DNA from: Nitrospira sp.
Lineage (GTDB): Bacteria > Nitrospirota > Nitrospiria > Nitrospirales > Nitrospiraceae
Length of the DNA stretch: 64,000 bases
Direction: 5' to 3'
Assembly (NCBI GenBank): GCA_030123605.1
Contig: CP126123.1
Location: forward strand, 3,018,001 to 3,082,000
Below, one piece after another: positions 24,204-41,918 of the stretch. The translations under genes were made by a program, and so were the position numbers. Position 1 is the first letter of the stretch. Each line of letters begins with the position of its first letter. Under the pieces are notes generated by a model. The model was not told where the DNA came from. It searched no databases and was given only the letters and a program-made list of their open reading frames with translations.

Positions 24204-24437
24204 TTACCTGCCGCCGAACTTCTTGACCAGTTCCATCGATTGCTCAATGGCTTTCATGTTTTGCTGCAGGATCGCCCGTTGATTCTCCAACTGAATCAGC
24301 GCGAGTTGAGACAGGGCTTCTTTCGGCAGGTTCGCCCGCTCGAAAAACCACCACGGTACCGGATCCCAATTGATCGGTACTCGCCACTTGAAGATTTCCG
24401 GCAATTGCAATTCAGGATTGATGCTTGCCTTTTCCAT
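24204..24437 (-). CDS. 77-residue protein preceding radical SAM gene
   Basis: The start is fixed by a strong AAAGGAGG a few bases before ATG 24437. Residues about 15-40 are rich in Trp, Phe and Pro (IFKWRVPINWDPVPWWFF), and the rest is a charged amphipathic helix (LIQLENQRAILQQNMKAIEQ) ending KKFGGR. There is no signal peptide. Possible roles: partner subunit of the radical SAM enzyme, or a substrate peptide. It has a sigma-54-like promoter at 24586-24601 and tandem palindromes at 24688-24724. I recognise no family. Confidence 0.8.
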   Translation of the reverse strand: MEKASINPELQLPEIFKWRVPINWDPVPWWFFERANLPKEALSQLALIQLENQRAILQQNMKAIEQSMELVKKFGGR

Positions 24438-24585: not shown

Positions 24586-24601
24586 AGCAATGCGTATGCC
24601 G
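24586..24601 (-). promoter_or_regulatory. Sigma-54 promoter of the 77-aa protein/radical SAM operon
   Basis: Minus strand reads CGGCATACGCATTGCT: GG at 24600-24599, ten bases, GC at 24588-24587, with the TTGC core. The predicted leader is about 140 bases. Confidence 0.75.
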
Positions 24602-24687: not shown

Positions 24688-24724
24688 GTATCCGAATGAA
24701 TACGTGCGTTATCGAATGGGATAC
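24688..24724. promoter_or_regulatory. Tandem GTATC-N6-GATAC sites (enhancer-like)
   Basis: GTATCCGAATGAATAC (24688-24703) and TTATCGAATGGGATAC (24709-24724), 21 bp apart. The outer flanks also form an inverted pair ACACTGTATCC/GGATACAGTGT. They lie about 100 bp upstream of the sigma-54 promoter. Confidence 0.75.
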
Positions 24725-24794: not shown

Positions 24795-25475
24795 TCAGCC
24801 GTGACAACTGCCCTTGTGGCGGGGTTCCGAATCGATGGCAGAGGCGGGCCGTGCTTCAGCCGCAACTGCCGGAAGGCCGTCCTGCGCATCGGAAGCCAGT
24901 ACCAGTTTCTTCAAGCGCGCCCAAGGAAACGACTTTCCCGGATCACTCCGGCGGGCGGGGTCGAGCTTCGCGTGGGACACCACGTGTTTCAGGTTGGGGT
25001 ACTTGGCCCAACAGTAGCGAATGATCCGTGCCGTCGTCAGAACCTGCCAGTCTGAAACCCCATCGCGGACCGTTTGACTGTTGACCACCTCGATGCCGAC
25101 GGACCAGTGATTGACCTTGGTCGCGCCGGCATTGACATCCGGGTGGCTACAAGCGTTTCGGACATGCCAAGCAGCCCTGGCTTCCGGCGCGCAGGCCCAC
25201 ACCAATTGTCCATGCTGCGGCTCGTCTTCATCGGGCAGCAGCCAGTGGAATGAAGCCTGGCCCTCCTTCATCACCGAAATGGCCCCCGCTGAACCGGCCC
25301 CGGCAGTCGCGTGGATGACGACCGCTTTGACGCCCAGGATGGCGTCGTAGATGCGACTGGACGTGCTGATCTCCCAATAGGCCTGGATGTCCGGGTACCA
25401 GACTTCGTTGAGCAGCACGTCCATCGGACGGCCCGTTTCGGGCAGATCGAATTGGTACTTGGTGGGATCAGCCAT
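24795..25475 (-). CDS. N-acetylmuramoyl-L-alanine amidase (amidase_2 type)
   Basis: 226 residues. Amidase_2/PGRP zinc-site features: VVIHATAGAGSAGA with the first His, SFHWLL, AAWHVRNACS, GIEVVNS with the Glu, and VVSHAKLDPARRSDPG with the last His and Lys. It cleaves the bond between muramic acid and the stem peptide. No signal peptide or wall-binding repeat is visible, as in phage endolysins, so export would need another route or lysis. The short C-terminal tail is Ala-rich. A near-consensus sigma-54 promoter (25513-25528) and palindromes lie upstream. Confidence 0.88.
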   Translation of the reverse strand: MADPTKYQFDLPETGRPMDVLLNEVWYPDIQAYWEISTSSRIYDAILGVKAVVIHATAGAGSAGAISVMKEGQASFHWLLPDEDEPQHGQLVWACAPEARAAWHVRNACSHPDVNAGATKVNHWSVGIEVVNSQTVRDGVSDWQVLTTARIIRYCWAKYPNLKHVVSHAKLDPARRSDPGKSFPWARLKKLVLASDAQDGLPAVAAEARPASAIDSEPRHKGSCHG

Positions 25476-25512
25476 GGATCATTTCCCGATTCAGGTTGTG
25501 TGTATTGGAATC

Positions 25513-25528
25513 AGCAAGCCCCGTGCCG
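25513..25528 (-). promoter_or_regulatory. Sigma-54 promoter of the amidase gene
   Basis: Minus strand CGGCACGGGGCTTGCT, nearly the full consensus: GG at 25527-25526 and GC at 25515-25514 with ten bases between. The predicted leader is about 25-30 bases. Confidence 0.82.
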
Positions 25529-25615
25529 TTAGCAACGAGGAGGAGATCTCTGCCCGTTTATCAGATAGATATGAATGGACGGATGGTTCACCACGCAATG
25601 CGGTGGGAGGGAATT

Positions 25616-25652
25616 GTATCCAGGACCGCCACAGCCTTATCGAAACAGATAC
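25616..25652. promoter_or_regulatory. Tandem GTATC/GATAC sites upstream of amidase
   Basis: A full site TTATCGAAACAGATAC (25637-25652) and a GTATC half-site at 25616, offset exactly 21 bp. They lie 90-125 bp upstream of the sigma-54 promoter of the amidase. Confidence 0.72.
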
Positions 25653-25724
25653 AACCTGTGAAGGTTCCGGCGAATGGAGGGAAGGTCGGATGAGTGAACG
25701 GACGAGGGTACGTTCGACGCGTTC

Positions 25725-26423
25725 TTACGGCGGTGCCGTCAGGTCGGTACGAATCCAGGTGAGGTAAAAAAGCGCAGTGTATTGATCGTAGTTGGTGCGT
25801 CCGATGATCGTGGCGGAGGAGCCTTTGTATTCGCCGGTGAGGTTGTCGAAAACATCGAGATGGAACCGGGCATAGCCGCTCTGGGCTTGAAGTTTGTAGA
25901 GGGTCAGCTCCGGAAGCGCAAAAGGAATGACGACGCTTTGGACGGGCGGCATGCCGACGAAGGTCAAGCCCTGCATCGTCCCCAACGCCTCGATGGAGAT
26001 TTTCACCAGATATGGCGGTTGATCCTCACGGCGTCTGATGCGGTAGCCCATTTGTCCGAGGGCCACGGCCACGCTGTCCTTCACGATTTGAAAGTCCACC
26101 GTGGGGTCCTGCACCGTGCCGGCGGTCTGATCGCGCATCGTCAGGCGTGCGCGGTCGATATAAAACCCGCTGATCTCGAGATGCAGGCCGGCCTGTGGCG
26201 GAAGCGTCAAGGTCAGGTTCGTCAAGGCGCGCTCCACCGCCTTCGTCAGCAAGAGTTGTTCGACGGCCGTACGCGGCGTGCGCGAGATCTCCTGCTCGAT
26301 CGCGCAGCCGGGAAAGCATAAGAGGATGACAGCCCATAACAGGGTCCAAATGGGGTGCGGAATAGTCGACTCCTGACTGGTGGTGTTTCTTGGAGGGTAC
26401 GCGAACCGGTTCCTCGTTCGCAA
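25725..26423 (-). CDS. Putative lipoprotein, DUF6655-like
   Basis: 232 residues. A hydrophobic stretch ends in FPGC, a lipobox at about residues 37-40, so the mature protein is probably membrane-anchored. The segment SRTPRTAVEQLLLTKAVERAL is what I remember as the start of DUF6655 proteins. The remainder is beta-rich (FYIDRARLTM, PPYLVKISIEALGTMQG, ARFHLDVFD). Function unknown. It is encoded 34 bp downstream of the glycosyltransferase gene on the same strand. Confidence 0.72.
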   Translation of the reverse strand: MRTRNRFAYPPRNTTSQESTIPHPIWTLLWAVILLCFPGCAIEQEISRTPRTAVEQLLLTKAVERALTNLTLTLPPQAGLHLEISGFYIDRARLTMRDQTAGTVQDPTVDFQIVKDSVAVALGQMGYRIRRREDQPPYLVKISIEALGTMQGLTFVGMPPVQSVVIPFALPELTLYKLQAQSGYARFHLDVFDNLTGEYKGSSATIIGRTNYDQYTALFYLTWIRTDLTAPP

Positions 26424-26457
26424 GGTGGCGTGGCTCGGAGCGACCGCCGTTCGTGGG

Positions 26458-27714
26458 CTATGTGTGAGAGGAAGTCACGGTCACCCCAACTGCCGGCGGC
26501 CGGCGTAGCTGCCGGAAGAGGCGCACCATCCGGTCCGGTCTGGTGAAAGCGCGCGGGTCATTAAGCACGGCCCTTGCCGCGACCATCCAGGCGCGCCGGG
26601 GGGAACCGGGTTTCAGGGCAATGGCGGCGGCCGACAAGAGCTTGCCCAAGAGGTATCGGTCCTGTACGGACGATACCGAATTCTCCATAGGGCGTTCCTG
26701 TTTGATCTCCCGCCAGAAAGCCTTCACCGCCTGCTCAGGATGGTCTGCCGCGGTCGCGAGCCCACCGGCCACTCGTTCGACCCAATGCAGGACCACGGAC
26801 TCCGACAGGAGCCATGGTGCCGTTTTCAAGGTGGTGAGCAGGTATTGCCTGGTCGAGGCGACGCCGCCGGTCCACCACCTCTGACCCGCGATCGTGGCAC
26901 ACACGGCGGCCCGCGCCTTCCGCCTGACCTGATCCGCTTCCGGCGTCGCCGGGAGGCGCGTCAGTACGCCCTCGATAATTCGAGGCAGCCGTTGCTCATT
27001 GGTGCCGTTGACGATGTTGCTGTACCACTTGCCCTGTTTGGAGAACCGTCCGCGCGCCACCGGGCCGCCGGATAGAAAGGTCCATCGCGTCAACGATGCC
27101 AATCGGAGGGCCATGTCATAATGTTCCATCGTTCGGTGCGTTTCGTCAAACCACCCGGCGGCCTCGAATAATTCACGCCGGACAAGCCAGGTGGGGGGAT
27201 GGAGAAAATCGTCGGTTCGCGTGAGAAACTCCTCAAACACCTGCCCCGACGGACCCCAGTCCGGCCACAGCAGAAGCGGATTGTCGCTGCCGGTCACCAC
27301 GCTTTGCCCATAGACCACTCCCACCTCCGGATCGGCCTCGAGGATCGGAACCTGGACCATCAGTTTGTGGGTGAGAAACTCGTCGTCATCGTCGAGTAAC
27401 GCCACATATTTCCCCTGCGCGCGCTTGATGCCGGCATTTCTCGCGCCGGACGCACCCAGGTTTTTCGGGAGCCTGACATATTGAACGCCGGGGTACTTAG
27501 CTGCTATGTCGGCCGTCTCATCGGGAGAACAATCGTCGACCACGATGATCTCCAAGTCGAACAGTTCTCCTTTCTGCTCTTGAGCCAGAGCGGACTCGAT
27601 GGCCTTCGTGAGCAACGGGCCGCGGTTGTACGTCGGGATGACGACCGTGACAAGCGGGCGTCCGGCAGTCTTTTCGATGGTCGTGGTCGATGGTTGGGTG
27701 GTTGGAGTCGCCAT
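26458..27714 (-). CDS. Family 2 glycosyltransferase
   Basis: 418 residues. The GT-A nucleotide-sugar-binding half is textbook: LVTVVIPTYNRGPLLTKAIE, EIIVVDDCSPDETA, LGASGARNAGIKRAQG and ALLDDDDEF with the DxD metal site. FSKQGKWYSNIVNGTNEQR may shape the acceptor side. There are no transmembrane segments. The C-terminal 150 residues are helical, rich in Arg and Trp, with no recognised domain. Likely adds sugars to a surface polysaccharide or glycolipid; substrate unknown. It appears to head a two-gene transcript with the DUF6655-like lipoprotein. Confidence 0.9.
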   Translation of the reverse strand: MATPTTQPSTTTIEKTAGRPLVTVVIPTYNRGPLLTKAIESALAQEQKGELFDLEIIVVDDCSPDETADIAAKYPGVQYVRLPKNLGASGARNAGIKRAQGKYVALLDDDDEFLTHKLMVQVPILEADPEVGVVYGQSVVTGSDNPLLLWPDWGPSGQVFEEFLTRTDDFLHPPTWLVRRELFEAAGWFDETHRTMEHYDMALRLASLTRWTFLSGGPVARGRFSKQGKWYSNIVNGTNEQRLPRIIEGVLTRLPATPEADQVRRKARAAVCATIAGQRWWTGGVASTRQYLLTTLKTAPWLLSESVVLHWVERVAGGLATAADHPEQAVKAFWREIKQERPMENSVSSVQDRYLLGKLLSAAAIALKPGSPRRAWMVAARAVLNDPRAFTRPDRMVRLFRQLRRPPAVGVTVTSSHT

Positions 27715-27926
27715 GGTCCGGTCCTCTATGAAAACCCTACACGCTGTCCTGTGGACAGTCGAAGGCCTATGGGCCTAGCTCTGTGTCATACCGATCAAGA
27801 GGCGACCTGTTCTGAACAAGCGCTGCAAGCACCTCCTTAGACTAAAGACGTTCCAGTAAATGGAATCCACAATGAGCGCTCAAGAAAATGTGCCTTCGCT
27901 CGCCTCAAAAGCAACGATTTGCTGGT

Positions 27927-27942
27927 ATATCGGAAAAGATAC
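27927..27942. promoter_or_regulatory. GTATC-N6-GATAC-type site upstream of lipoprotein
   Basis: ATATCGGAAAAGATAC, one clear copy, about 85 bp before the sigma-54 promoter at 28015-28030. No second copy is obvious at 21-23 bp. The 417-bp gap 27715-28131 holds this site and promoter and no convincing gene. Confidence 0.6.
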
Positions 27943-28014
27943 AGCCTTCGTTCCCCGTAAAGTCGGTTCCCCAATGGTTCAATAACTTCGTGGCAATACA
28001 ACCAAATCAGGTGC

Positions 28015-28030
28015 TGGCTCGCTCTTTGCT
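28015..28030 (+). promoter_or_regulatory. Sigma-54 promoter of the Cys-rich lipoprotein
   Basis: TGGCTCGCTCTTTGCT: GG at 28016-28017, ten bases, GC at 28028-28029. The leader to ATG 28132 would be about 90 bases. Confidence 0.75.
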
Positions 28031-28131
28031 CACCTCCATAGTCAAGAGCGAGAGACCTGGATTAAGCGATTGGGAGCATCATGCACATCGTATGAGTCCC
28101 CATGACGGACGTTCCGAGGGGAGGATCGGCC

Positions 28132-28542
28132 ATGAAACACCTACTGACGATTCTTGGTTCCGTCGGTATCCTGGTTCTTGTCAACGGTTGTGTTGCGACT
28201 CACACTTGCAGCAGTCAGGAAATGATCAACATGAAGGAACAGGGGTTCGGCGTCGACGAAATCAGCAACCTTTGCACCAGCTACAAAATTTCGGAGGAAG
28301 CGGTTCAGGCTTTATCGCAGACCATGCAAAGCCAACTCCAAAAAAATCGCCAGAACGGAAGCCAGTCGATGCAGGCTGTAGCGCCGAGTTCGTATCAGGC
28401 GCCCTCGTCTTGGGCCGTGCAGAGCCATGGGAGTTTCTGCGCGACACAAGCCGGCTCCTGTCGCCTGATGCAACCAGGCCCCAATGGCGCACCCTGCGTC
28501 TGCAATACGCCTTACGGACAGATTCCCGGAGTCGTGCGGTAG
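28132..28542 (+). CDS. Cysteine-rich lipoprotein, 136 aa
   Basis: The ATG at 28132 follows GGGGAGGATCGGC. Signal peptide with lipobox VNGC at about residues 17-20. The mature part has a helical segment around EMINMKEQGFGVDEISNL, a Ser/Gln-rich linker, and a C-terminal module with four cysteines (FCATQAGSC, then CVCNTPYGQIPG). The last motif recurs in small secreted proteins of unknown role. Under apparent sigma-54 control with an upstream palindrome. Confidence 0.8.
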   Translation: MKHLLTILGSVGILVLVNGCVATHTCSSQEMINMKEQGFGVDEISNLCTSYKISEEAVQALSQTMQSQLQKNRQNGSQSMQAVAPSSYQAPSSWAVQSHGSFCATQAGSCRLMQPGPNGAPCVCNTPYGQIPGVVR

Positions 28543-28589
28543 GCGGCGGCAGGATCAGAGAATCGCAAGGAAGGCAAGATCGTGGTGGA

Positions 28590-29159
28590 TCAGCGTTCGC
28601 CTGTCGTCAGAATGTCCCAGACGAGCAGGCCAAGGGCCACATAGAGGCTGCTCATGAGCCACAGTTTGATGATCGTGGCACAGCTGGAGACTCGGATCCA
28701 TGCACCCTGTAGGTTGCCGTCACCTTCCGACCCATCCTGAAAGCGGCCGAGCTGGTTCAGTTGGACGAGGTTTTCCGTCCAGTCTGCGGCCAATGCGATC
28801 GCGAGGGGCGCCGTGAGCCATACCAGAGGAAACGGATTGTTCAACGTCACCCACACCCACCAGAGGCTTGCTGAGAGTGCTCCGCCATAGAGAAAAGGGA
28901 ACAGGAGGTCGAGTCGGAGGAACGTTCTCTCAGTCAGGCGCCCAGGCTTTTGGAGTGCGCGCCAGTAAATCCGTACTGCTGCAGGCCCGTAACCAAGCCA
29001 CCGCATGTTTAATGGTTTGGGGACTGTGTGGCCGGCTTGCGTCAAACGCTTGATCGTGGATGCCCGCCCGCTGATTCGATTCAAAACCGGGCCGCCGCCG
29101 AGCAGCACCGCTATAGGAAATCCTAAAGCAATAACAGCGTTCAGGGTTGTGCCGGTCAT
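28590..29159 (-). CDS. Hypothetical membrane protein, 189 aa
   Basis: Starts at ATG 29159 (MTGTTLNAV); an open frame 18 codons longer lacks support. About four hydrophobic helices: ALGFPIAVLLGGG at the N-terminus, LLFPFLYGGALSASLWWVWV, PLVWLTAPLAIALAADWTEN and WLMSSLYVALGLLVWDIL at the end. The ADWTENLVQLNQL stretch is distinctive. No catalytic motif or known family recognised. The gene is convergent with the Cys-rich lipoprotein gene. Confidence 0.75.
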   Translation of the reverse strand: MTGTTLNAVIALGFPIAVLLGGGPVLNRISGRASTIKRLTQAGHTVPKPLNMRWLGYGPAAVRIYWRALQKPGRLTERTFLRLDLLFPFLYGGALSASLWWVWVTLNNPFPLVWLTAPLAIALAADWTENLVQLNQLGRFQDGSEGDGNLQGAWIRVSSCATIIKLWLMSSLYVALGLLVWDILTTGER

Positions 29160-29267
29160 GAATGGGCTCCCCAATCTTGTTCTCGTGCGCGCCTGAAAGA
29201 TCGGCAAGGCCAATGCCTGGATTCATGAACAAGGGCGTTTCGCGACCGGTCTTGCATGCGAGAAGCA

Positions 29268-29711
29268 TCAATCCGGCGGGCGGCGATAAAACTCCAGCGG
29301 CGGGGCGATCTCGCTTGCGAATGACAAGCTTTCACCGTCCAGGCGGTAACGGGTCGAGGCTTCAAACGCCCGGATGAACGAGGCTTCAAACTCCATGGAT
29401 CGGGGCTCGCAGGCCATGCGCGTGGTGATTCCAGGAGACACCTTCACGTCTCCCGCATGGGGTCCGAAGACGACGGCGGCACTATAATGATTGCAGCCCG
29501 CATGGCCCGAGACCCTCCCATCTTTGAACGTGAGGATCACGGGTTCTCCATCGTCGCCGTGCGGAACGAGACGATCGCCCCAGTGCGCCAGTTCCCATCG
29601 GTTCTTCTCGGCGCGCCGAGTCATGTCCTCCGGCGAAGGCGGGGAGACGCAGGATGTCAGCATCAGACCGGCACATGCCGTGAGGAAGAAGTGAAGTAAG
29701 GACGTTCGCAT
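29268..29711 (-). CDS. META-domain (HslJ-like) lipoprotein
   Basis: 147 residues. Signal peptide with lipobox LTSC at about residues 18-21. The META/HslJ fold signature is GHAGCNHYSAAV, followed by ITTRMACEPRSMEFEASFI and YRLDGESLSF. The proline-rich end is short. META proteins are secreted or lipid-anchored and in E. coli HslJ is tied to novobiocin tolerance and heat shock; the role here is unknown. Confidence 0.85.
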   Translation of the reverse strand: MRTSLLHFFLTACAGLMLTSCVSPPSPEDMTRRAEKNRWELAHWGDRLVPHGDDGEPVILTFKDGRVSGHAGCNHYSAAVVFGPHAGDVKVSPGITTRMACEPRSMEFEASFIRAFEASTRYRLDGESLSFASEIAPPLEFYRRPPD

Positions 29712-29744
29712 AGGTCGGGCCTCCTGCGTATGGCGGCCTAGCGC

Positions 29745-30110
29745 TCAGCCGATAGCGCTTGTGAACGTCAAACGGTTCCTGAACGGATCGTGCACCGACA
29801 TGTCGTGACTGCCCCAGGGTGTTTCTTCAATTTCGGGTCGGGCATATCGATACTGCTTCGTTAGAAGTTCCCGCTGAAGCGCTTCCAGGTCATGCGTTTG
29901 AATTCTCATCGCTATGCCGGGACTTCCGTCGCCGTAGTGTTCTGATAGATGAAGGATGCAACCGTCTCTCGACACTTGCATGTAGAGCGGCAAGCCGGCC
30001 TCAAAGCGATGTTCCCAATCCAGTGTGAAGCCGAGAAAATCAAGATAGAACTCTTTCGCCTTGGCTTCATCGAAGATGCGCAGGATCGGGATGGGGTTTC
30101 CGAGTCTCAT
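29745..30110 (-). CDS. VOC-family protein, glyoxalase/bleomycin-resistance type
   Basis: 121 residues from ATG 30110 (MRLGNPIPILRIFDEAKAKE); the frame runs 45 codons further upstream but that part does not look protein-like. Two beta-alpha-beta-beta-beta repeats can be seen: AKEFYLDFLGFTLDWEH with GCILHLSEHYGDG, and the ending GSHDMSVHDPFRNRLTF, which is typical of bleomycin-resistance proteins. Ligand unknown. No Shine-Dalgarno precedes the start. Confidence 0.82.
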   Translation of the reverse strand: MRLGNPIPILRIFDEAKAKEFYLDFLGFTLDWEHRFEAGLPLYMQVSRDGCILHLSEHYGDGSPGIAMRIQTHDLEALQRELLTKQYRYARPEIEETPWGSHDMSVHDPFRNRLTFTSAIG

Positions 30111-30350
30111 GAAGGAGGGTTTTGCGGAAGAGTCGCTCGTCGGGCAACAGATAGGTGCCCGATGGTACGGCGTTCCGTGAGGATACGCGAAATCACAGGT
30201 CCTTGTCCAGTGAGGTGACCTCCCGAAGCGTTGGAGGTGCCTCATCGGACTCCTGTGAATCCTGCAGGCTATTCAGGGATTCGCAAAACAGCATGGTGGC
30301 CACTTGGTCGAGTCCCCTTCAGCCTAGGCAATGTGCGTAGGCATTGATCT

Positions 30351-30388
30351 GTATCAAGACGGATACGGAAGAGTATCGGAAGAGATAC
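30351..30388. promoter_or_regulatory. Two perfect GTATC-N6-GATAC palindromes, 22 bp apart
   Basis: GTATCAAGACGGATAC (30351-30366) and GTATCGGAAGAGATAC (30373-30388). They lie about 75-110 bp upstream of the sigma-54 promoter of the NUC endonuclease. The 479-bp gap 30111-30589 holds this regulatory block and no convincing gene. Confidence 0.82.
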
Positions 30389-30462
30389 GCCTCCATGTTG
30401 CATTTCTCAAGGGCAGTGCAGCGGGCCTCATGTTTTTACGGAGTTTTCAGGCGGCACTATCA

Positions 30463-30478
30463 TGGCGGGCAGTTTGCA
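30463..30478 (+). promoter_or_regulatory. Sigma-54 promoter of the endonuclease/S8 protease pair
   Basis: TGGCGGGCAGTTTGCA: GG at 30464-30465, ten bases, GC at 30476-30477. The leader to ATG 30590 is about 100 bases. Confidence 0.78.
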
Positions 30479-30589
30479 GGATCATGTTCACGAGTGATCG
30501 TATGTTCGGCAGGCCTTGTGCGGCGGGATATCCGAACGTCGTCTTGCCGACCTCGCCGGCGCACGGGTATTTCCAGAAAGGAAGCAGCC

Positions 30590-31540
30590 ATGATCGTTGC
30601 ACACTCAACCGAGCTTGAGCAGATGAAAACACTGGGTGAATTGGCCGAGCGGGCCTCAACCATCCCCCGCTACCAGGAGGAGGCCGATCTGGCTCCGCTT
30701 GTGAGGGACGTTCGCGACTATGCCGGGCGAACGGGATATGCCGCGCAATTTCTCCACGAATTCGATGTGCCGCACCCGACACCGGTCGGAGTCCGGGAGC
30801 AGGACGTTGCCCCTCTGTTGCATGGATCCGAAACGGAACTCAAGTACGAACATTTTTCCGTCGTGATGTCGAAGTCACGGCGGCTCGCCATCTATGTGGC
30901 CTGCAACATCGACGGCCGGCGTTCGCAACGCATCAAACGCGGCAAGGATCGTTGGAGCCTCGATCCGCGCATGGATCGGGACTATCAGACCGGAGAAGAC
31001 CTCTATGCGGGCAACGAATTGGACCGTGGTCATCTCGTGCGACGTGAGGATCCGGTGTGGGGCCAGAAGCACGAAGCGGCCGTTGCGAACGAGGACACCT
31101 TCCACTTCACCAATTGTTCCCCGCAACATGAAAAGTTCAATCAACAAACCTGGCTGGGGCTCGAAGACTATATTCTGCGGAACAGCCGCGCGCATAAATT
31201 GAAGGTGACCGTGTTTACGGGACCGATTTTTCAGGACGACGATCCGGAGTATCGCGGGGTGCTTCTGCCGCGCCAGTATTGGAAGGTGGTTGCGGTGGTT
31301 TCCGACGGGAGGAAGTCGGCCACGGCCTACATGATCAGCCAATCGGAGGTACTCGAACATCTGCGGGCCTTTGGGTTCGGCCGATACAAGACCTATCAGG
31401 TGAGCATCGACCAGATTGAGCGACTGACGGACTTGGACTTCGGGCCGCTGAAGCACTATGACGGTTTCACCACCGAGGAAGCGCACACCAGGCAGGCGAT
31501 GCGGGCCGAGATTCGTTCCTGGAAAGACATTCGGATCTGA
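30590..31540 (+). CDS. DNA/RNA non-specific endonuclease (NUC family)
   Basis: 316 residues from ATG 30590, preceded by AGAAAGGAAGCAGCC; the longer open frame upstream covers the regulatory region. The betabetaalpha-metal nuclease signature DRGHLVRREDPVWG carries the catalytic His, with the metal-ligand Asn within FTNCSPQHEKFNQQTWLGLE. GPIFQDDDPEY follows. Unlike Serratia nuclease there is no signal peptide; about 90 N-terminal residues form an extra helical region (MKTLGELAERASTIPRYQEE). The protein may be released by lysis or act inside the cell. The subtilase gene follows after 66 bp. Confidence 0.9.
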   Translation: MIVAHSTELEQMKTLGELAERASTIPRYQEEADLAPLVRDVRDYAGRTGYAAQFLHEFDVPHPTPVGVREQDVAPLLHGSETELKYEHFSVVMSKSRRLAIYVACNIDGRRSQRIKRGKDRWSLDPRMDRDYQTGEDLYAGNELDRGHLVRREDPVWGQKHEAAVANEDTFHFTNCSPQHEKFNQQTWLGLEDYILRNSRAHKLKVTVFTGPIFQDDDPEYRGVLLPRQYWKVVAVVSDGRKSATAYMISQSEVLEHLRAFGFGRYKTYQVSIDQIERLTDLDFGPLKHYDGFTTEEAHTRQAMRAEIRSWKDIRI

Positions 31541-31606
31541 GGCGCGTCGAACGTCGTCTCATCGACGCACCAGTTGCCAGCACTCACAGACGGGAGGAGG
31601 ACGGTC

Positions 31607-33736
31607 ATGCCTGAACTCACAGAGGTGCGACTCGGCAAGAAAACAGAACCCCCGATCGTGCTTCGCAAAAGCGATGATCTGATCGCAGTCCGGACCCGAT
31701 CGACACGATCCATCAGAGCCGGAGCCGTTCGAACCCCTGAATCCGGAGAAGTAGCGGACGGACATCTCGTGTTCACGGTTCCCGAGGCCGGTGTCGAAAT
31801 CTACCGCGTTCCTCCCGGAGCCGGGCGTCGGTCGCTGAAAAGCCGGAAAGAGGCACTTCGTGCGGCTGCCGATGTCAGGTTTGCCGGTGGCGTGATGGTG
31901 GATGAGCAGTCCAGAGAACCGGTGCTATATACCGAAAACCTGTTTATCAAATTCGTCGATGAGATGGATTTGGAAGACTGCCGGGCCGTGATCCGGGAAG
32001 CGGGCCTCGTCATCAAGAAAGAGCTGACCTACGCCACCAACGCGTTTTTCGTCGCTGCGCCGGAGGGCACAGGCACCAGGGTCTTCGAGACCGCGGCGTC
32101 GCTCTTGAATCGCCCGGATGTCGAATATTGTCACCCGGAGCTTGTCCGGCCGAAAGGCCGTCGCGTGATCGCCGTGGAGCAATGGCATCTCAAAACCACT
32201 ACGATCGACGGGACAGCGGTATCAGCCAGCGCCAGCGTCGAGGCGGCGCATCAGGTTACCCAAGGGGAGGGAGTGGTGATCGCCGTCATAGACGACGGCG
32301 TGGATATCGACCATCCGGAGTTCAGCGGTGCGGGGAAGATTGTCGCGCCTCGTGATGCCAGCCTCGGCACCAGCGATCCACGGCCGAAGGATCCCCATCC
32401 GACCTTCACGGAAGACCATGGCACCGCCTGCGCAGGCGTGGCCTGCGCGGCCGGCCTCGTGCGCGCTTCCGGCGTGGCGCCGAAGGCCAAACTGATCCCG
32501 ATCCGACTGAGTTCGGCGCTCGGATCACAACAAGAAGCCGAGGCGTTCGAATGGGCTGCCAACAACGGCGCCGACGTGATTTCGTGCAGTTGGGGACCCG
32601 AGGACGGAGACTGGTGGAATCCGAACGATCCAACGCACAATCAGAAAGTTCCCATTCCCGCCAGTACGAGACTGGCCGTGGATTACGCGACGACCAAAGG
32701 ACGGGGAGGGAAGGGGTGCGTCGTGCTCTTTGCCGCGGGGAACGGGAACGAGAGCGTGGATAACGACGGGTACGCGAGTTACGAACGCATCATCGCGGTG
32801 GTGGCTTGCAATGATCGTGGGAAACGTAGTGTCTATAGCGATTTCGGTAAGGCCGTCTGGTGTTCGTTTCCAAGCAGCGATCGAGGCCATGCGCCGTTTC
32901 AGCATCCGGCTCCCCTTACGAAAGGAATATTCACGACGGATCGCGTGGGAGCGTCGGGCTACAATCCCGGAACGTCGGGGGCCGGCGACAGTCGCGGGAA
33001 CTACACGAACAGCTTCGGCGGGACATCCAGCGCCTGCCCCGGCGCGGCGGGCGTTGCCGCACTGGTGCTATCGGTCAATCCTGAATTGAAATGGCAGGAA
33101 GTGCGGGAAATCCTCAAGCAATCCTGCGACAAGATCGATCCGCAGGGCGGCAATTACACGGCAGAAGGGTGGAGCCGATTCTACGGTTACGGCCGTCTCA
33201 ATGCCGAGAAGGCCGTCGCCCTGGCCAAGCCGGGGACACAGAACCGCATCCTCATCAGCCGCACATTCAACGAGCTCATTCCGGATCTCCAGATGGTGAC
33301 GGTCTCGCTGGATGTGAATGACGCCACGCCGATCGAAAATTTGATCGTCCATCTCGATCTTGCGCACACGTATATCGGAGACTTGGTCATTACCTTGATG
33401 CCGCCGACCGGGTTGAGTCCGGCCAAGGTCGTGCTGCACGATCGAACGGGCGGTGCGACGCAGAATCTCAAGCGGACCTACGACATGCTGGATACCCAGG
33501 CGCTGGCTCCGCTGAAGGGTAAAGGCCTCAAGGGAACATGGACGCTCAATATTGAAGATGCGGAGGTTCGGGACGAGGGGACGCTGAAGCAATTCGGTCT
33601 CGAACTGGTCTTCGGCTCCGTTGGTCCGCGTGTGGAAGCCGCGCGAAGCACCGGTGCGATGAATCACGGAAGGCGAGCCGCCGACGGTCGTGCGAGCAAG
33701 ATGAGCAGTCGGCGCGCACCATTCCGTCGAGCCTGA
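31607..33736 (+). CDS. S8 subtilisin-like protease with propeptide and P domain
   Basis: 709 residues, start fixed by GGGAGGAGG before ATG 31607. Residues 1-185 form a propeptide-like region whose second half (CRAVIREAGLVIKKEL, then DVEYCHPELV) resembles fervidolysin-type inhibitors. The catalytic triad is Asp229 (VIDDGVD), His271 (EDHGTACAG) and Ser474 (GTSSACPG), with oxyanion Asn379 (AAGNGN). A proprotein-convertase P domain occupies about 565-690 (IENLIVHLDLAHTYIGDLVI, GTWTLNIED). There is no signal peptide, unusual for a subtilase with a P domain. It is probably co-transcribed with the nuclease from the sigma-54 promoter. Confidence 0.92.
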   Translation: MPELTEVRLGKKTEPPIVLRKSDDLIAVRTRSTRSIRAGAVRTPESGEVADGHLVFTVPEAGVEIYRVPPGAGRRSLKSRKEALRAAADVRFAGGVMVDEQSREPVLYTENLFIKFVDEMDLEDCRAVIREAGLVIKKELTYATNAFFVAAPEGTGTRVFETAASLLNRPDVEYCHPELVRPKGRRVIAVEQWHLKTTTIDGTAVSASASVEAAHQVTQGEGVVIAVIDDGVDIDHPEFSGAGKIVAPRDASLGTSDPRPKDPHPTFTEDHGTACAGVACAAGLVRASGVAPKAKLIPIRLSSALGSQQEAEAFEWAANNGADVISCSWGPEDGDWWNPNDPTHNQKVPIPASTRLAVDYATTKGRGGKGCVVLFAAGNGNESVDNDGYASYERIIAVVACNDRGKRSVYSDFGKAVWCSFPSSDRGHAPFQHPAPLTKGIFTTDRVGASGYNPGTSGAGDSRGNYTNSFGGTSSACPGAAGVAALVLSVNPELKWQEVREILKQSCDKIDPQGGNYTAEGWSRFYGYGRLNAEKAVALAKPGTQNRILISRTFNELIPDLQMVTVSLDVNDATPIENLIVHLDLAHTYIGDLVITLMPPTGLSPAKVVLHDRTGGATQNLKRTYDMLDTQALAPLKGKGLKGTWTLNIEDAEVRDEGTLKQFGLELVFGSVGPRVEAARSTGAMNHGRRAADGRASKMSSRRAPFRRA

Positions 33737-33745
33737 TCTTGCGAT

Positions 33746-34900
33746 TCATGAGCGTGGGATGACTGACGAGTTGCCCGCATCAGGGGGCACGACTTCTGAC
33801 CGGCCAAGGTTACGGTAAACGGCTTGCGACTGTTCGGAGGAAAATCGAATCCCTCTTTCCTCCAAGAATGCCGCAATGCGCTCGGCAACCGAACGGTTCA
33901 TTGCCGGGGAGTAGTGGCCACCGGGCAGAAACAGATTCTGCAGCCGGCTGGGCTGGAGCTGCAGCATTTCCGTTGACAAATCCAACACCGTGACGCCATT
34001 CTTTCTCGCACGTGTGACAAGGTTTGGAAGTCGGGTGTTGCCTCCGATGCGGCCATTTGTCGCCAAAGCGACAGCGATGAATTGACTCCTCCGGCCTTTT
34101 GCGAGATCGTCCAAACGAACCAGGAGGTCGGCGCTGACCTCTTCACCGTCGTGATGGATCTGCTCAATGACCGGGAGATTTTGCCACCATTGACGGGCTA
34201 TCCTGTCGAGAACGGCATCGGCAAGAACACTGTACCCCAGCACATGACGCAAGGTTTGAAAGCCCTGAAAGCCGCGAGGAGCGGGTTCTTGTGGAACAGG
34301 GACATTTCGCAAAATGAGCGAACCGTCCCCATATTCGAAATAGGGTTTCCATCCCCGGCCGTATGGATAGTAGGAGTATTCGGTTCGATTGATGTCGTCG
34401 GAAATGAACGACAGGATCACGACATCCGGATCGTAGGTATCCAAAAGAAGTTCGGCCCGAAGGAAGGCTTGGTCGATCCCATACGCTCCGACACCGGCGT
34501 TGACCACGCGCTTGTTCAGAATGTCCTCCAGATGCGCCGCCCACGTCTCACGATCTTCCACCTCATCTCCAAAGGTGAATGAATCGCCGACCGCGAGAAT
34601 AGCCCGACTTGTGGTCGAGAGCGATCGACCGTTGCTTCGGACGCCGGATGCGTCGACATTCGAAGTCCAGTCACTGCTGAATCGACCGGGTCTCGGAACC
34701 CAGCCCAGCCGAGGATGGTAGACCATGCGGCCGATTCTATTTTGGGGTTCAGCGGTCGAGGACTGAAACTGGAGCACCGTTCCATGATGAACTCGAACGG
34801 CGAGTTCCAGGCCCAGCAGAGTCAGGCACAGGCTGATGGACGTCAAAACGATGTTGTGTACGCTGGACGTTTTCATCGCGTGTGTCGCCCGCGACATCAT
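33746..34900 (-). CDS. SGNH/GDSL hydrolase, membrane-anchored
   Basis: 384 residues. One N-terminal hydrophobic anchor (IVLTSISLCLTLLGLELAV) is followed by an SGNH-type fold: ILAVGDSFTFGDEVEDRETW with the nucleophile Ser, VNAGVGAYGIDQ with the Gly and its loop, VVILSFISDDINR, and the ending LPGGHYSPAMNRSVAERI with the catalytic His. Such proteins deacylate sugars or lipids, often in polysaccharide pathways. Two starts are possible (34900 or 34876). It is convergent with the S8 protease gene, 9 bp apart. Confidence 0.8.
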   Translation of the reverse strand: MMSRATHAMKTSSVHNIVLTSISLCLTLLGLELAVRVHHGTVLQFQSSTAEPQNRIGRMVYHPRLGWVPRPGRFSSDWTSNVDASGVRSNGRSLSTTSRAILAVGDSFTFGDEVEDRETWAAHLEDILNKRVVNAGVGAYGIDQAFLRAELLLDTYDPDVVILSFISDDINRTEYSYYPYGRGWKPYFEYGDGSLILRNVPVPQEPAPRGFQGFQTLRHVLGYSVLADAVLDRIARQWWQNLPVIEQIHHDGEEVSADLLVRLDDLAKGRRSQFIAVALATNGRIGGNTRLPNLVTRARKNGVTVLDLSTEMLQLQPSRLQNLFLPGGHYSPAMNRSVAERIAAFLEERGIRFSSEQSQAVYRNLGRSEVVPPDAGNSSVIPRS

Positions 34901-37838: not shown

Positions 37839-38468
37839 CTATCCTTTCCTGCCGAATCCCTCCCCCGTCATCACCTCCGCCACGTTGTGCCCGTTCACGA
37901 AGACATCGGCCAGGGTGCGGCCGTAGACGTCGTGGCCGTAGGGCACGATACGGATCTCGCCCTCGTGCAGGAGTTGTTGGAGACGCAGGGTTGCTTCGAG
38001 GCCTCCCGGTTCCGATCGTTCCGGGGCGTTGTATCCACGGATGCGAATACGGTCGGGGCCGTAACGAAGCGTGTCTCCATCGATCGCACGAACCAGTTGT
38101 CGCTCAATGCTGTGTCCCGGCCGCTCCTGCTCCAGATGGTAGTGAGGGAGCAGGCGGAAATGGCTGCCGCCTGAATGCGATTTCTTTGCAAACGGGTTCT
38201 TGTGCGGGCGGGGTCCCCTCTCATGATGTCCGCGCCGATATCGTTGCGCCTGATGTTGAGGCAGCGGCGTACGTTCCTCCGGCTTCAGCGTCCAGCAATC
38301 GTGGCAGTGGAAGGGCCCCGGATCGCTCGGGCCCGCCGGGGTATAGGTGTGCAGGGTGGAACGACTTTCCTCCACCGTGCCGACGGCTTGTGTAGCCGGT
38401 GACGCGATCAGAAACAACAGGGTCAGCCGGTTCAGGAGGCGAGAATTTTGTAAGGCCGTCGGCAGCAT
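37839..38468 (-). CDS. Secreted thermonuclease-family (SNase) protein
   Basis: 209 residues from ATG 38468, preceded by GGAGGAACCGATCAC. Signal peptide (LLNRLTLLFLIASPATQAVG), then a His/Pro/Arg-rich linker of about 90 residues with HCHDCW. The C-terminal SNase domain follows: VRAIDGDTLRYGPDRIRIRG, YNAPERSEPGGLEATLRLQ, and YGHDVYGRTLADVFVNGHNV. These hold the Asp, Arg and Glu catalytic residues. A sigma-54-like element lies 37 bp upstream. The gene may have been cut into by the integrase remnant, which ends 17 bp away. Confidence 0.85.
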   Translation of the reverse strand: MLPTALQNSRLLNRLTLLFLIASPATQAVGTVEESRSTLHTYTPAGPSDPGPFHCHDCWTLKPEERTPLPQHQAQRYRRGHHERGPRPHKNPFAKKSHSGGSHFRLLPHYHLEQERPGHSIERQLVRAIDGDTLRYGPDRIRIRGYNAPERSEPGGLEATLRLQQLLHEGEIRIVPYGHDVYGRTLADVFVNGHNVAEVMTGEGFGRKG

Positions 38469-38503
38469 GTGATCGGTTCCTCCGGTTCTCTGCTGAGGGA
38501 TAA

Positions 38504-38519
38504 AGCACGCTCCATGCCA
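38504..38519 (-). promoter_or_regulatory. Possible sigma-54 promoter of the SNase gene
   Basis: Minus strand TGGCATGGAGCGTGCT: GG at 38518-38517, GC at 38506-38505, one T of the -12 box missing. No GTATC-N6-GATAC site is at the usual 85-105 bp; the nearest tandem pair is 38972-39008. Confidence 0.5.
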
Positions 38520-38690
38520 TGGCCACGCTCCAGACATCCTGAGGTTGACAAGCCGAAAAACCGCATGCTCAAATGCCGTCCGATCATCGTATCTCGTGAA
38601 GCGCGAAGTGTGGTTCGCCAGAGGCTCTCACCGCAGGGTCTTTCTTCACGAGGTACGGGATACGAACGACGACTTACGGAGGTGTAACTC

Positions 38691-38971: not shown

Positions 38972-39008
38972 GTATCCGAATGGATGCATTTCGTATCGGT
39001 TTCGATAC
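38972..39008. promoter_or_regulatory. Tandem GTATC-N6-GATAC sites without an evident promoter
   Basis: GTATCCGAATGGATGC (38972-38987) and a perfect GTATCGGTTTCGATAC (38993-39008), 21 bp apart. They lie between two gene ends (the 77-aa gene and hemL). No GG-N10-GC was found within about 100 bp on either side. Confidence 0.7.
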
Positions 39009-40486: not shown

Positions 40487-40525
40487 GTATCTGTTTCGAT
40501 ACGGCCGGACGGACGAAGAGGATAC
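40487..40525. promoter_or_regulatory. Tandem GTATC-N6-GATAC sites upstream of small zinc-type gene
   Basis: GTATCTGTTTCGATAC (40487-40502, perfect arms) and CGGACGAAGAGGATAC (40510-40525, one arm kept), 23 bp apart. They lie 75-115 bp before the sigma-54 promoter at 40601-40616. hemL diverges on the other side. Confidence 0.75.
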
Positions 40526-40600
40526 AGTCCTGATGGGTTAAAGTGATATGCAGGTCCCTTTTTTACGGAAAAATAGGAGGTTAAGCGGAGTCGACGCGAA

Positions 40601-40616
40601 TGGCGCAGGTCTTGCT
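40601..40616 (+). promoter_or_regulatory. Sigma-54 promoter of the 76-aa protein
   Basis: TGGCGCAGGTCTTGCT: GG at 40602-40603, ten bases, GC at 40614-40615. The leader is about 23 bases to ATG 40649, which has a GTAGGAGGAAACA ribosome site. Confidence 0.78.
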
Positions 40617-41381: not shown

Positions 41382-41918
41382 CTAGCGAACCGACTTTTTC
41401 GACCCCTTGGACCGTGATGTGTTCCCGCCCTTGTGTTCCATCGCCAGCGGCGGTGCGAACCAATTGTGGCGGGCGTGTTTATGGCGGTCGGACACGACCA
41501 GCACCGCGTGAAACGGCAGGCCGTTTCCCGTCGCCTCGTCGGATTCCTTGAGGCTCCAGGCTTCGCCGGCTTCGTTCAAAATTTCGACGAAGGTTTCGAA
41601 ATCGTCCTCTTCATCCGGTTTCGTCAGGACCTGATCGGCATCCGTCACCACTACGAGGTAACCGGTAGCCGGTAACCAGTCGAGGTCGGCTAAACATTCT
41701 TCGAGGGCGTCCCAGTTATGGCCGAAATACTCCGGGAAGGAGAAGACCCGGCTGAATTCCGCCAGCAGTCCCGCCTTGGTTTTGCATTTCTTGCCCGAGA
41801 CGGTCTTGGTCAGAAAATGCGACGGAACCGACAGGATCTTATCAAGCGGTTGCCCTTCGGCATGGACCAACAGATGTGCCCAGGGTTTCTTGATCGATTG
41901 AAGCGCGGTAATCGACAT
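41382..41918 (-). CDS. Barstar-family ribonuclease inhibitor
   Basis: 178 residues. The barstar fold is seen in TKAGLLAEFSRVFSFPEYFG, HNWDALEECLADLDWLP and YLVVVTDADQVL. In barstar the Asp and Trp of the NWDAL segment contact the nuclease active site. The protein is cytoplasmic. It is longer than classical barstar (about 90) at both ends, with a basic C-terminal tail. The gene directly upstream encodes a secreted RNase, so this is its immunity protein. Confidence 0.88.
   Translation of the reverse strand: MSITALQSIKKPWAHLLVHAEGQPLDKILSVPSHFLTKTVSGKKCKTKAGLLAEFSRVFSFPEYFGHNWDALEECLADLDWLPATGYLVVVTDADQVLTKPDEEDDFETFVEILNEAGEAWSLKESDEATGNGLPFHAVLVVSDRHKHARHNWFAPPLAMEHKGGNTSRSKGSKKSVR

What the first reader, a model, noticed from the sequence alone, without database searches (positions are those of the whole stretch)
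24795..33736. Amidase, nuclease and protease, all without signal peptides, under the same apparent control
Three degradative enzymes (amidase_2, NUC endonuclease, S8 protease with P domain) show no N-terminal signal, yet such families are usually exported. Shared sigma-54 elements suggest joint expression. A programmed lysis, DNA and protein recycling, or kin-antagonism role would explain cytosolic storage and release on lysis. This is a hypothesis from gene families and control regions only.
Basis: inference. Interest (0 to 1): 0.7.

Follow-up and report, generated by a model that had tools for sequence, protein, structure and literature searches.

The report
Sigma-54 regulon of leaderless lytic enzymes
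In a nitrite-oxidising Nitrospira, a wall-cutting amidase and a nuclease-protease gene pair, none with an export signal, share one sigma-54 enhancer system that also fronts protein-injection machinery; the shared switch is real and genus-wide, but the three enzymes are two separate units rather than one lysis machine.

Summary
Amidase_2 (24795-25475), Endonuclease_NS (30590-31540) and S8+P-domain protease (31607-33736) are catalytically complete and lack a hydrophobic N-terminus. The -24/-12 motif alone is at chance genome-wide. However, both promoters (amidase; nuclease-protease operon) also carry an upstream palindrome, GTATC-N6-GATAC: 38 perfect sites in the genome against 1 in the reversed control, enriched in all 29 Nitrospira genomes. 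63% of site groups have a good sigma-54 element nearby, against 5% of random positions. Site-promoter spacing is conserved across relatives. This is a sigma-54 enhancer regulon; its activator was not identified. It also fronts a type VI secretion operon, an activator next to an extracellular injection system, and other leaderless hydrolases. The three enzymes are not one inherited unit: the amidase occurs in 16 of 29 Nitrospira genomes, the nuclease in 2, plus 2 other genera without the amidase. The nuclease-protease pair best fits the published NucA-peptidase conflict system, with an S8 protease in place of trypsin, and probably acts inside cells. Type VI delivery is not supported: 3 of 4 nuclease genomes lack it. 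Function rests on families and neighbourhoods only.

The parts
24795..25475 (-). Amidase_2 (AmpD/AmiD-like), 226 aa, no signal peptide
   Evidence: Pfam PF01510 59 bits; PDB relatives AmiD, AmpDh3, AmpD; catalytic motifs intact, no hydrophobic N-terminus; orthologues in 16 of 29 Nitrospira genomes
25514..25528 (-). sigma-54 -24/-12 element CGGCACGGGGCTTGC of the amidase
   Evidence: 9 of 10 consensus bases; conserved in G001, G011 and G020 at a fixed 122-124 bp from the enhancer site
25637..25652 (-). enhancer site GTATCTGTTTCGATAA of the amidase (1 mismatch)
30351..30388 (+). tandem enhancer sites GTATCAAGACGGATAC and GTATCGGAAGAGATAC, 22 bp apart, of the nuclease-protease operon
   Evidence: tandem kept in G019 and G040, one site kept in G048
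30463..30477 (+). sigma-54 -24/-12 element TGGCGGGCAGTTTGC of the nuclease-protease operon
   Evidence: present upstream of all four orthologues
30590..31540 (+). Endonuclease_NS (NucA/EndoG family), 316 aa, no signal peptide
   Evidence: PF01223 181.6 bits; PDB NucA, EndoG, Serratia nuclease; orthologues 93, 85 and 70% identical
31607..33736 (+). S8 serine protease with kexin/furin-type P domain, 709 aa, no signal peptide, same operon
   Evidence: PF00082 and PF01483; PDB furin, kexin, mirolase
24688..24724 (-). tandem enhancer sites (1 mismatch each), upstream of the small gene 24204-24437(-)
   Evidence: sigma-54 element CGGCATACGCATTGC at 24587-24601
27927..28029 (+). enhancer site (27927-27942) and sigma-54 element TGGCTCGCTCTTTGC (28015-28029) of the lipoprotein gene 28132-28542(+)
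38972..39008 (.). tandem enhancer sites, conserved next to the aminotransferase gene in other Nitrospira; target gene unclear
40487..40615 (+). enhancer site (40487-40502) and sigma-54 element TGGCGCAGGTCTTGC (40601-40615) before a 76-aa reading frame

Best explanation
The three enzymes are members of a large sigma-54 regulon. An as yet unidentified enhancer-binding activator binds GTATC-N6-GATAC (often two copies 21-22 bp apart) and, from about 75-125 bp upstream, activates sigma-54 RNA polymerase at a -24/-12 promoter. The amidase is one unit, old in Nitrospira. The nuclease and protease are a second unit, an operon that moves as a block with its own enhancer and promoter. In that operon the S8/P-domain protease most likely controls, by cleavage, a cytosolic NucA-type nuclease, as proposed for NucA-peptidase conflict systems. 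The lack of signal peptides then means action inside cells: self-killing or defence, with release on lysis possible. The amidase would attack peptidoglycan from inside, or recycle muropeptides. Shown: domain content, missing signals, enhancer and promoter sequences, regulon size, conservation. Inferred: binding by one activator, the protease-nuclease cascade, site of action.
For: Palindrome: 38 perfect sites against 1 reversed control in this genome; 160 against 42 with one mismatch; 14-38 against 0-2 in all 29 Nitrospira genomes. 22 of 35 site groups have a sigma-54 element of >=8/10 within 20-175 bp, against 5.2% of random positions; the groups were not picked by that element. Upstream of the nuclease, enhancer and sigma-54 element are kept in 4 of 4 orthologues down to 70% protein identity. 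Upstream of the amidase, both are kept in 4 genomes with the spacing fixed at 122-124 bp although the distance to the start codon varies; in five others (G014, G018, G019, G022, G023) a tandem site precedes the adjoining upstream gene 28590-like. The cassette 30251-33775 matches G019 as one block at 91%. Nuclease relatives are Trypsin_2 fusions in Paenibacillus, Pseudomonas and Rhizobium, have a Trypsin_2 gene next door in a cyanobacterium and Hymenobacter, and form a serine protease-NTPase-nuclease operon in Polaromonas. Kaur et al. 2020 (PMC7159879) define a NucA-peptidase system, including S8 peptidases, with a proposed proteolytic cascade.
Against: The activator was not found. The activator with sites upstream of its own gene occurs in only 2 of 29 Nitrospira genomes at the threshold used. 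No expression data exist. G048 keeps the nuclease and its enhancer without this protease next door. Eleven of the 15 amidase orthologues read lack an enhancer within 420 bp. Trypsin, a defining part of the published NucA-peptidase system, is absent from this operon.
Confidence: 0.55

Rival explanations
1. Antagonism regulon: the leaderless enzymes are payload of contractile injection machines (type VI secretion or eCIS) expressed by the same activator, and act in other cells.
For: A complete type VI operon starts just below tandem sites in this genome. tssJ of the same subtype has a perfect site upstream in G004 and G025. hcp of the second subtype has enhancer-like and sigma-54-like elements in four genomes. 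A site-preceded activator lies directly beside an eCIS locus with two eCIS_core proteins, and G048 has tandem sites upstream of its eCIS cluster. A Tle1-type phospholipase gene is another target. The eCIS tube gene is present in all four nuclease genomes.
Against: TssC is absent from 3 of 4 nuclease genomes and from 12 of 16 amidase genomes. eCIS frequency in genomes without these enzymes was not measured. The eCIS regions fetched from G019, G040 and G023 have no perfect site. No delivery domain was found on the three proteins. Nuclease relatives occur in Gram-positives.
Confidence: 0.2
2. Programmed lysis and recycling: all three are stored in the cytosol and jointly dissolve wall, DNA and protein when the cell dies.
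For: All three are leaderless and share an enhancer. An amidase and an S8 relative of the protease are neighbours on a Pantoea plasmid, and an amidase remnant lies beside an S8 gene in G017.
Against: Amidase and nuclease-protease have different distributions. No holin or other lysis trigger was recognised at either promoter. The regulon is far broader than lysis.
Confidence: 0.1
3. General surface/exterior regulon, as proposed for sigma-54 in many bacteria; the three enzymes do housekeeping (muropeptide recycling, nutrient scavenging).
For: Targets also include a TonB receptor, MauG- and cytochrome-type haem proteins and a polysaccharide deacetylase-like protein. Francke 2011 (PMC3162934) describes sigma-54 as a controller of the bacterial exterior.
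Against: Many targets are leaderless hydrolases, and the nuclease family is tied to conflict-type operons.
Confidence: 0.15

Closest known systems
NucA-peptidase conflict system ('System 3' of Kaur et al. 2020, PMC7159879)
   Same: Endonuclease_NS coupled to serine peptidase; S8 peptidases already noted in some members
   Different: peptidase is S8 with a kexin-type P domain in a separate downstream gene; no trypsin, EAD domain or NTPase in the operon; sigma-54 enhancer control
RhpR regulon of Pseudomonas syringae (PMC4191427)
   Same: identical binding element GTATC-N6-GATAC, shown there by footprint
   Different: no sigma-54 -24/-12 element is reported as part of RhpR promoters in the passages read; no RhpR orthologue was sought here
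PEP-CTERM/PrsR sigma-54 regulon (Haft 2006, PMC1569441)
   Same: repeated upstream sites about 60 bp before a sigma-54 element, many scattered single-gene targets
   Different: the motif there contains TTTACA, and none of the nine activators scanned reaches the PrsR model cut-off
Sigma-54 control of type VI secretion in Aeromonas, Marinomonas and others (cited in PMC3162934)
   Same: type VI genes under a sigma-54 activator
   Different: here one enhancer motif also covers many scattered leaderless hydrolases and occurs in genomes without type VI

Membership tests
sigma-54 / enhancer-binding-protein regulon | -24/-12 GG-N10-GC element near an upstream activator site | tested here: met
   22 of 35 site groups against 5.2% background; conserved in orthologues
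sigma-54 / enhancer-binding-protein regulon | genome encodes enhancer-binding activators | tested here: met
   29 strong Sigma54_activat loci
sigma-54 / enhancer-binding-protein regulon | cognate activator identified | tested here: inconclusive
   only one candidate was followed; it is in 4 of 81 genomes at E <= 1e-100 and is ruled out as the common regulator
NucA-peptidase conflict system | Endonuclease_NS with an intact DRGH site | tested here: met
NucA-peptidase conflict system | trypsin-like peptidase fused or in the operon | tested here: not met
   the adjacent peptidase is S8+P domain; relatives elsewhere do have trypsin; therefore filed as works-like, not as a member
NucA-peptidase conflict system | proteolytic activation of the nuclease | not testable with these tools
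   needs biochemistry
type VI effectors | host genome has the type VI machine | tested here: not met
   TssC in 1 of 4 nuclease genomes and 4 of 16 amidase genomes
type VI effectors | linked PAAR/VgrG or delivery domain | tested here: not met
   no such Pfam domain on the three proteins and no vgrG or PAAR hit among the Pfam-scanned neighbours
eCIS cargo | host genome has an eCIS | tested here: inconclusive
   tube gene in 4 of 4 nuclease genomes, but base rate unknown
AmpD (cytosolic anhydro-muropeptide amidase) | NCBIfam AmpD cut-off | tested here: not met
   46.4 bits against cut-off 143
PrsR regulon | activator reaching TIGR02915 cut-off 502.6 | tested here: inconclusive
   best 403.7 among nine activators scanned, out of 29

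The most novel reading that the evidence does not exclude
One activator, conserved across Nitrospira, runs a weapons regulon that switches on contractile injection machines (type VI and eCIS) together with a changing set of leaderless lytic enzymes, which reach other cells through those machines or through lysis.
Probability: 0.2. Interest if true: 0.8.

Novelty: new variant of a known kind. Interest (0 to 1): 0.58.

Why it matters
Nitrospira are key nitrifiers in soil and wastewater and very hard to manipulate genetically. A defined enhancer motif predicts, from sequence alone, which of their genes are switched on together, and links injection machinery with leaderless hydrolases in an organism known mainly for its metabolism. 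It also adds a possible S8/P-domain version to the NucA-peptidase family.

Tried and rejected
The -24/-12 motif as sole evidence: 41 matches against 41 reversed controls, rejected. The 235-kb response-regulator activator as master regulator: in 2 of 29 Nitrospira genomes at the threshold used, rejected. PrsR: no activator scanned reached the model cut-off. Histidine kinase-activator pair at 1.37 Mb: its site lies inside a reading frame with no sigma-54 element nearby, dropped. PADLOC: only a weak subtilase match. Type VI delivery: phyletic profile does not fit. A clean empty site in G001: the neighbouring genes are also rearranged there, so no simple insertion could be shown. An early orientation error in the promoter alignment was found and redone. 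Literature on a calcium-dependent cyanobacterial S8 protease gave nothing usable.
Full report
What is there. The window lies in a 4.32-Mb single-contig genome (G000:C1:3018001-3082000). A same-genus genome, G019, holds a contig of 116713 bases, the same length as a record titled Nitrospira sp. that encodes the same nuclease, so the genus is taken as Nitrospira. The three enzymes are as described: Amidase_2, Endonuclease_NS, and Peptidase_S8 with a P domain. Solved relatives are AmiD/AmpDh/AmpD for the amidase, NucA/EndoG/Serratia nuclease for the nuclease, and furin, kexin and mirolase for the protease. Active-site motifs are intact and no hydrophobic N-terminal stretch is present, whereas the exported controls show one. 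The nuclease starts at 30590 and the protease at 31607; the two are taken as one operon because they are 66 bp apart on one strand with no promoter found between them. Unrelated genes separate them from the amidase.

Shared control. GGCAC-N5-TTGC occurs 41 times in the genome and 41 times when reversed, so on its own it proves nothing. Aligning upstream regions of orthologues exposed a second element, the palindrome GTATC-N6-GATAC, often in two copies 21-22 bp apart. It has 38 perfect sites against 1 in the reversed control, 160 against 42 with one mismatch, and 9 in the window against 0.61 expected. Around 35 site groups, chosen without regard to sigma-54, 63% have a -24/-12 element with at least 8 of 10 consensus bases, against 5.2% at random positions. 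This is the anatomy of a sigma-54 enhancer. All 29 Nitrospira genomes examined have 14-38 perfect sites with 0-2 in the control, and some related genera share the enrichment.

Conservation at the two promoters. Upstream of the nuclease, enhancer and promoter are kept in all four orthologues, including G048 at 70% protein identity. Upstream of the amidase, four genomes keep both elements at 122-124 bp from each other although the distance to the start codon differs by up to 49 bp. In G014, G018, G019, G022 and G023 a tandem site precedes the neighbouring gene (28590-like) that lies just before the amidase on the same strand. The remaining amidase orthologues show no site within 420 bp, so control of the amidase by this enhancer is not universal.

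Not one unit. The amidase is intact in 16 of 29 Nitrospira genomes and was found in no other genus searched. The nuclease is in 2 of 29 Nitrospira genomes and, at high identity, in two other genera that lack the amidase. The block 30251-33775, which includes enhancer and promoter, aligns to G019 as one piece at 91%; in G040 the same operon sits in a different context. It behaves like a cassette that carries its own regulation.

What the nuclease-protease pair works like. Relatives of the nuclease are Trypsin_2 fusions in Paenibacillus, Pseudomonas and Rhizobium, sit beside a Trypsin_2 gene in a cyanobacterium and Hymenobacter, and form a serine protease-NTPase-nuclease operon in Polaromonas. 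Kaur et al. 2020 describe NucA-peptidase conflict systems, sometimes with S8 peptidases, and propose that a proteolytic cascade deploys the nuclease (PMC7159879). Here the trypsin is replaced by an S8/P-domain protease, so this is filed as working like that system, not as a proven member. In G048 the nuclease stands without this protease, with a caspase-family gene and a patatin-like gene a few kilobases away.

What else the regulon fronts. Candidate targets in this genome include a complete type VI operon (most components were named from sequence and order, TssJ and TssK by Pfam), an M64 peptidase, a Tle1-type phospholipase, a trypsin-like protease, a patatin-like protein, a haem peroxidase, a tyrosinase and a second S8 protease, most without signal sequences, but also exported haem proteins and a TonB receptor. 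Not all of these have a sigma-54 element of 8/10 or better; the haem peroxidase and second S8 protease score 7. tssJ of the same type VI subtype has a perfect site upstream in G004 and G025, and hcp of the second subtype has enhancer-like and sigma-54-like elements in four genomes. An activator gene preceded by tandem sites lies directly beside an eCIS locus with sheath, tube, spike, baseplate and two eCIS_core proteins; that activator is present in only four of 81 genomes at the threshold used and cannot be the master regulator.

Delivery. Type VI delivery of the three enzymes is not supported: TssC is in 1 of 4 nuclease genomes, 4 of 16 amidase genomes and 5 of 13 Nitrospira genomes without an intact amidase. 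An eCIS tube gene is in all four nuclease genomes and 13 of 16 genomes tested, but the base rate among genomes without these enzymes is unknown and most eCIS regions fetched lack a perfect site. The eCIS route therefore stays open.

Known or new. The motif equals the RhpR element of Pseudomonas syringae (PMC4191427), where no sigma-54 element is described as part of it in the passages read; whether this is convergence was not tested. It differs from the PEP-CTERM/PrsR motif. The literature searches made here found no description of this regulon in Nitrospira; that is a limited search of open papers. The result is judged a new variant of a known kind.

Noticed in passing
G000:C1:1005000-1030100 (L141, L142): Complete type VI secretion operon with vgrG and downstream PAAR-like genes, starting just below tandem GTATC-N6-GATAC sites.
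   Followed up: partly
G000:C1:235194-265000 (L173, L174): Sigma-54 activator gene preceded by tandem sites, directly followed by an eCIS locus with two eCIS_core (PF13699) proteins.
   Followed up: partly
window 41382-41918: Barstar-family (barnase inhibitor) gene with no ribonuclease partner recognised nearby.
   Followed up: no
window 37839-38537: Staphylococcal-nuclease homologue; a fragment of a second copy lies beside the nuclease cassette in G019 (L057).
   Followed up: partly
L186 3018-6617: Pantoea plasmid run of leaderless amidase, unnamed protein and S8 protease (48% identical to the window protease).
   Followed up: partly
L059 6475-13255: In G048 the nuclease stands alone, with a patatin-like and a caspase-family gene a few kilobases away.
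   Followed up: no
L113 4297-4893 and L133 3424-4077: Two related leaderless proteins (MALxQQxLxPGxGDQL...) of no known Pfam family, each next to enhancer sites.
   Followed up: no
L130 2475-4037: 520-aa protein of no known Pfam family opposite a tyrosinase gene, with three enhancer sites between them.
   Followed up: no
window 24204-24437: Small 77-aa gene with its own tandem enhancer and sigma-54 element, upstream of a B12-binding radical SAM gene.
   Followed up: no
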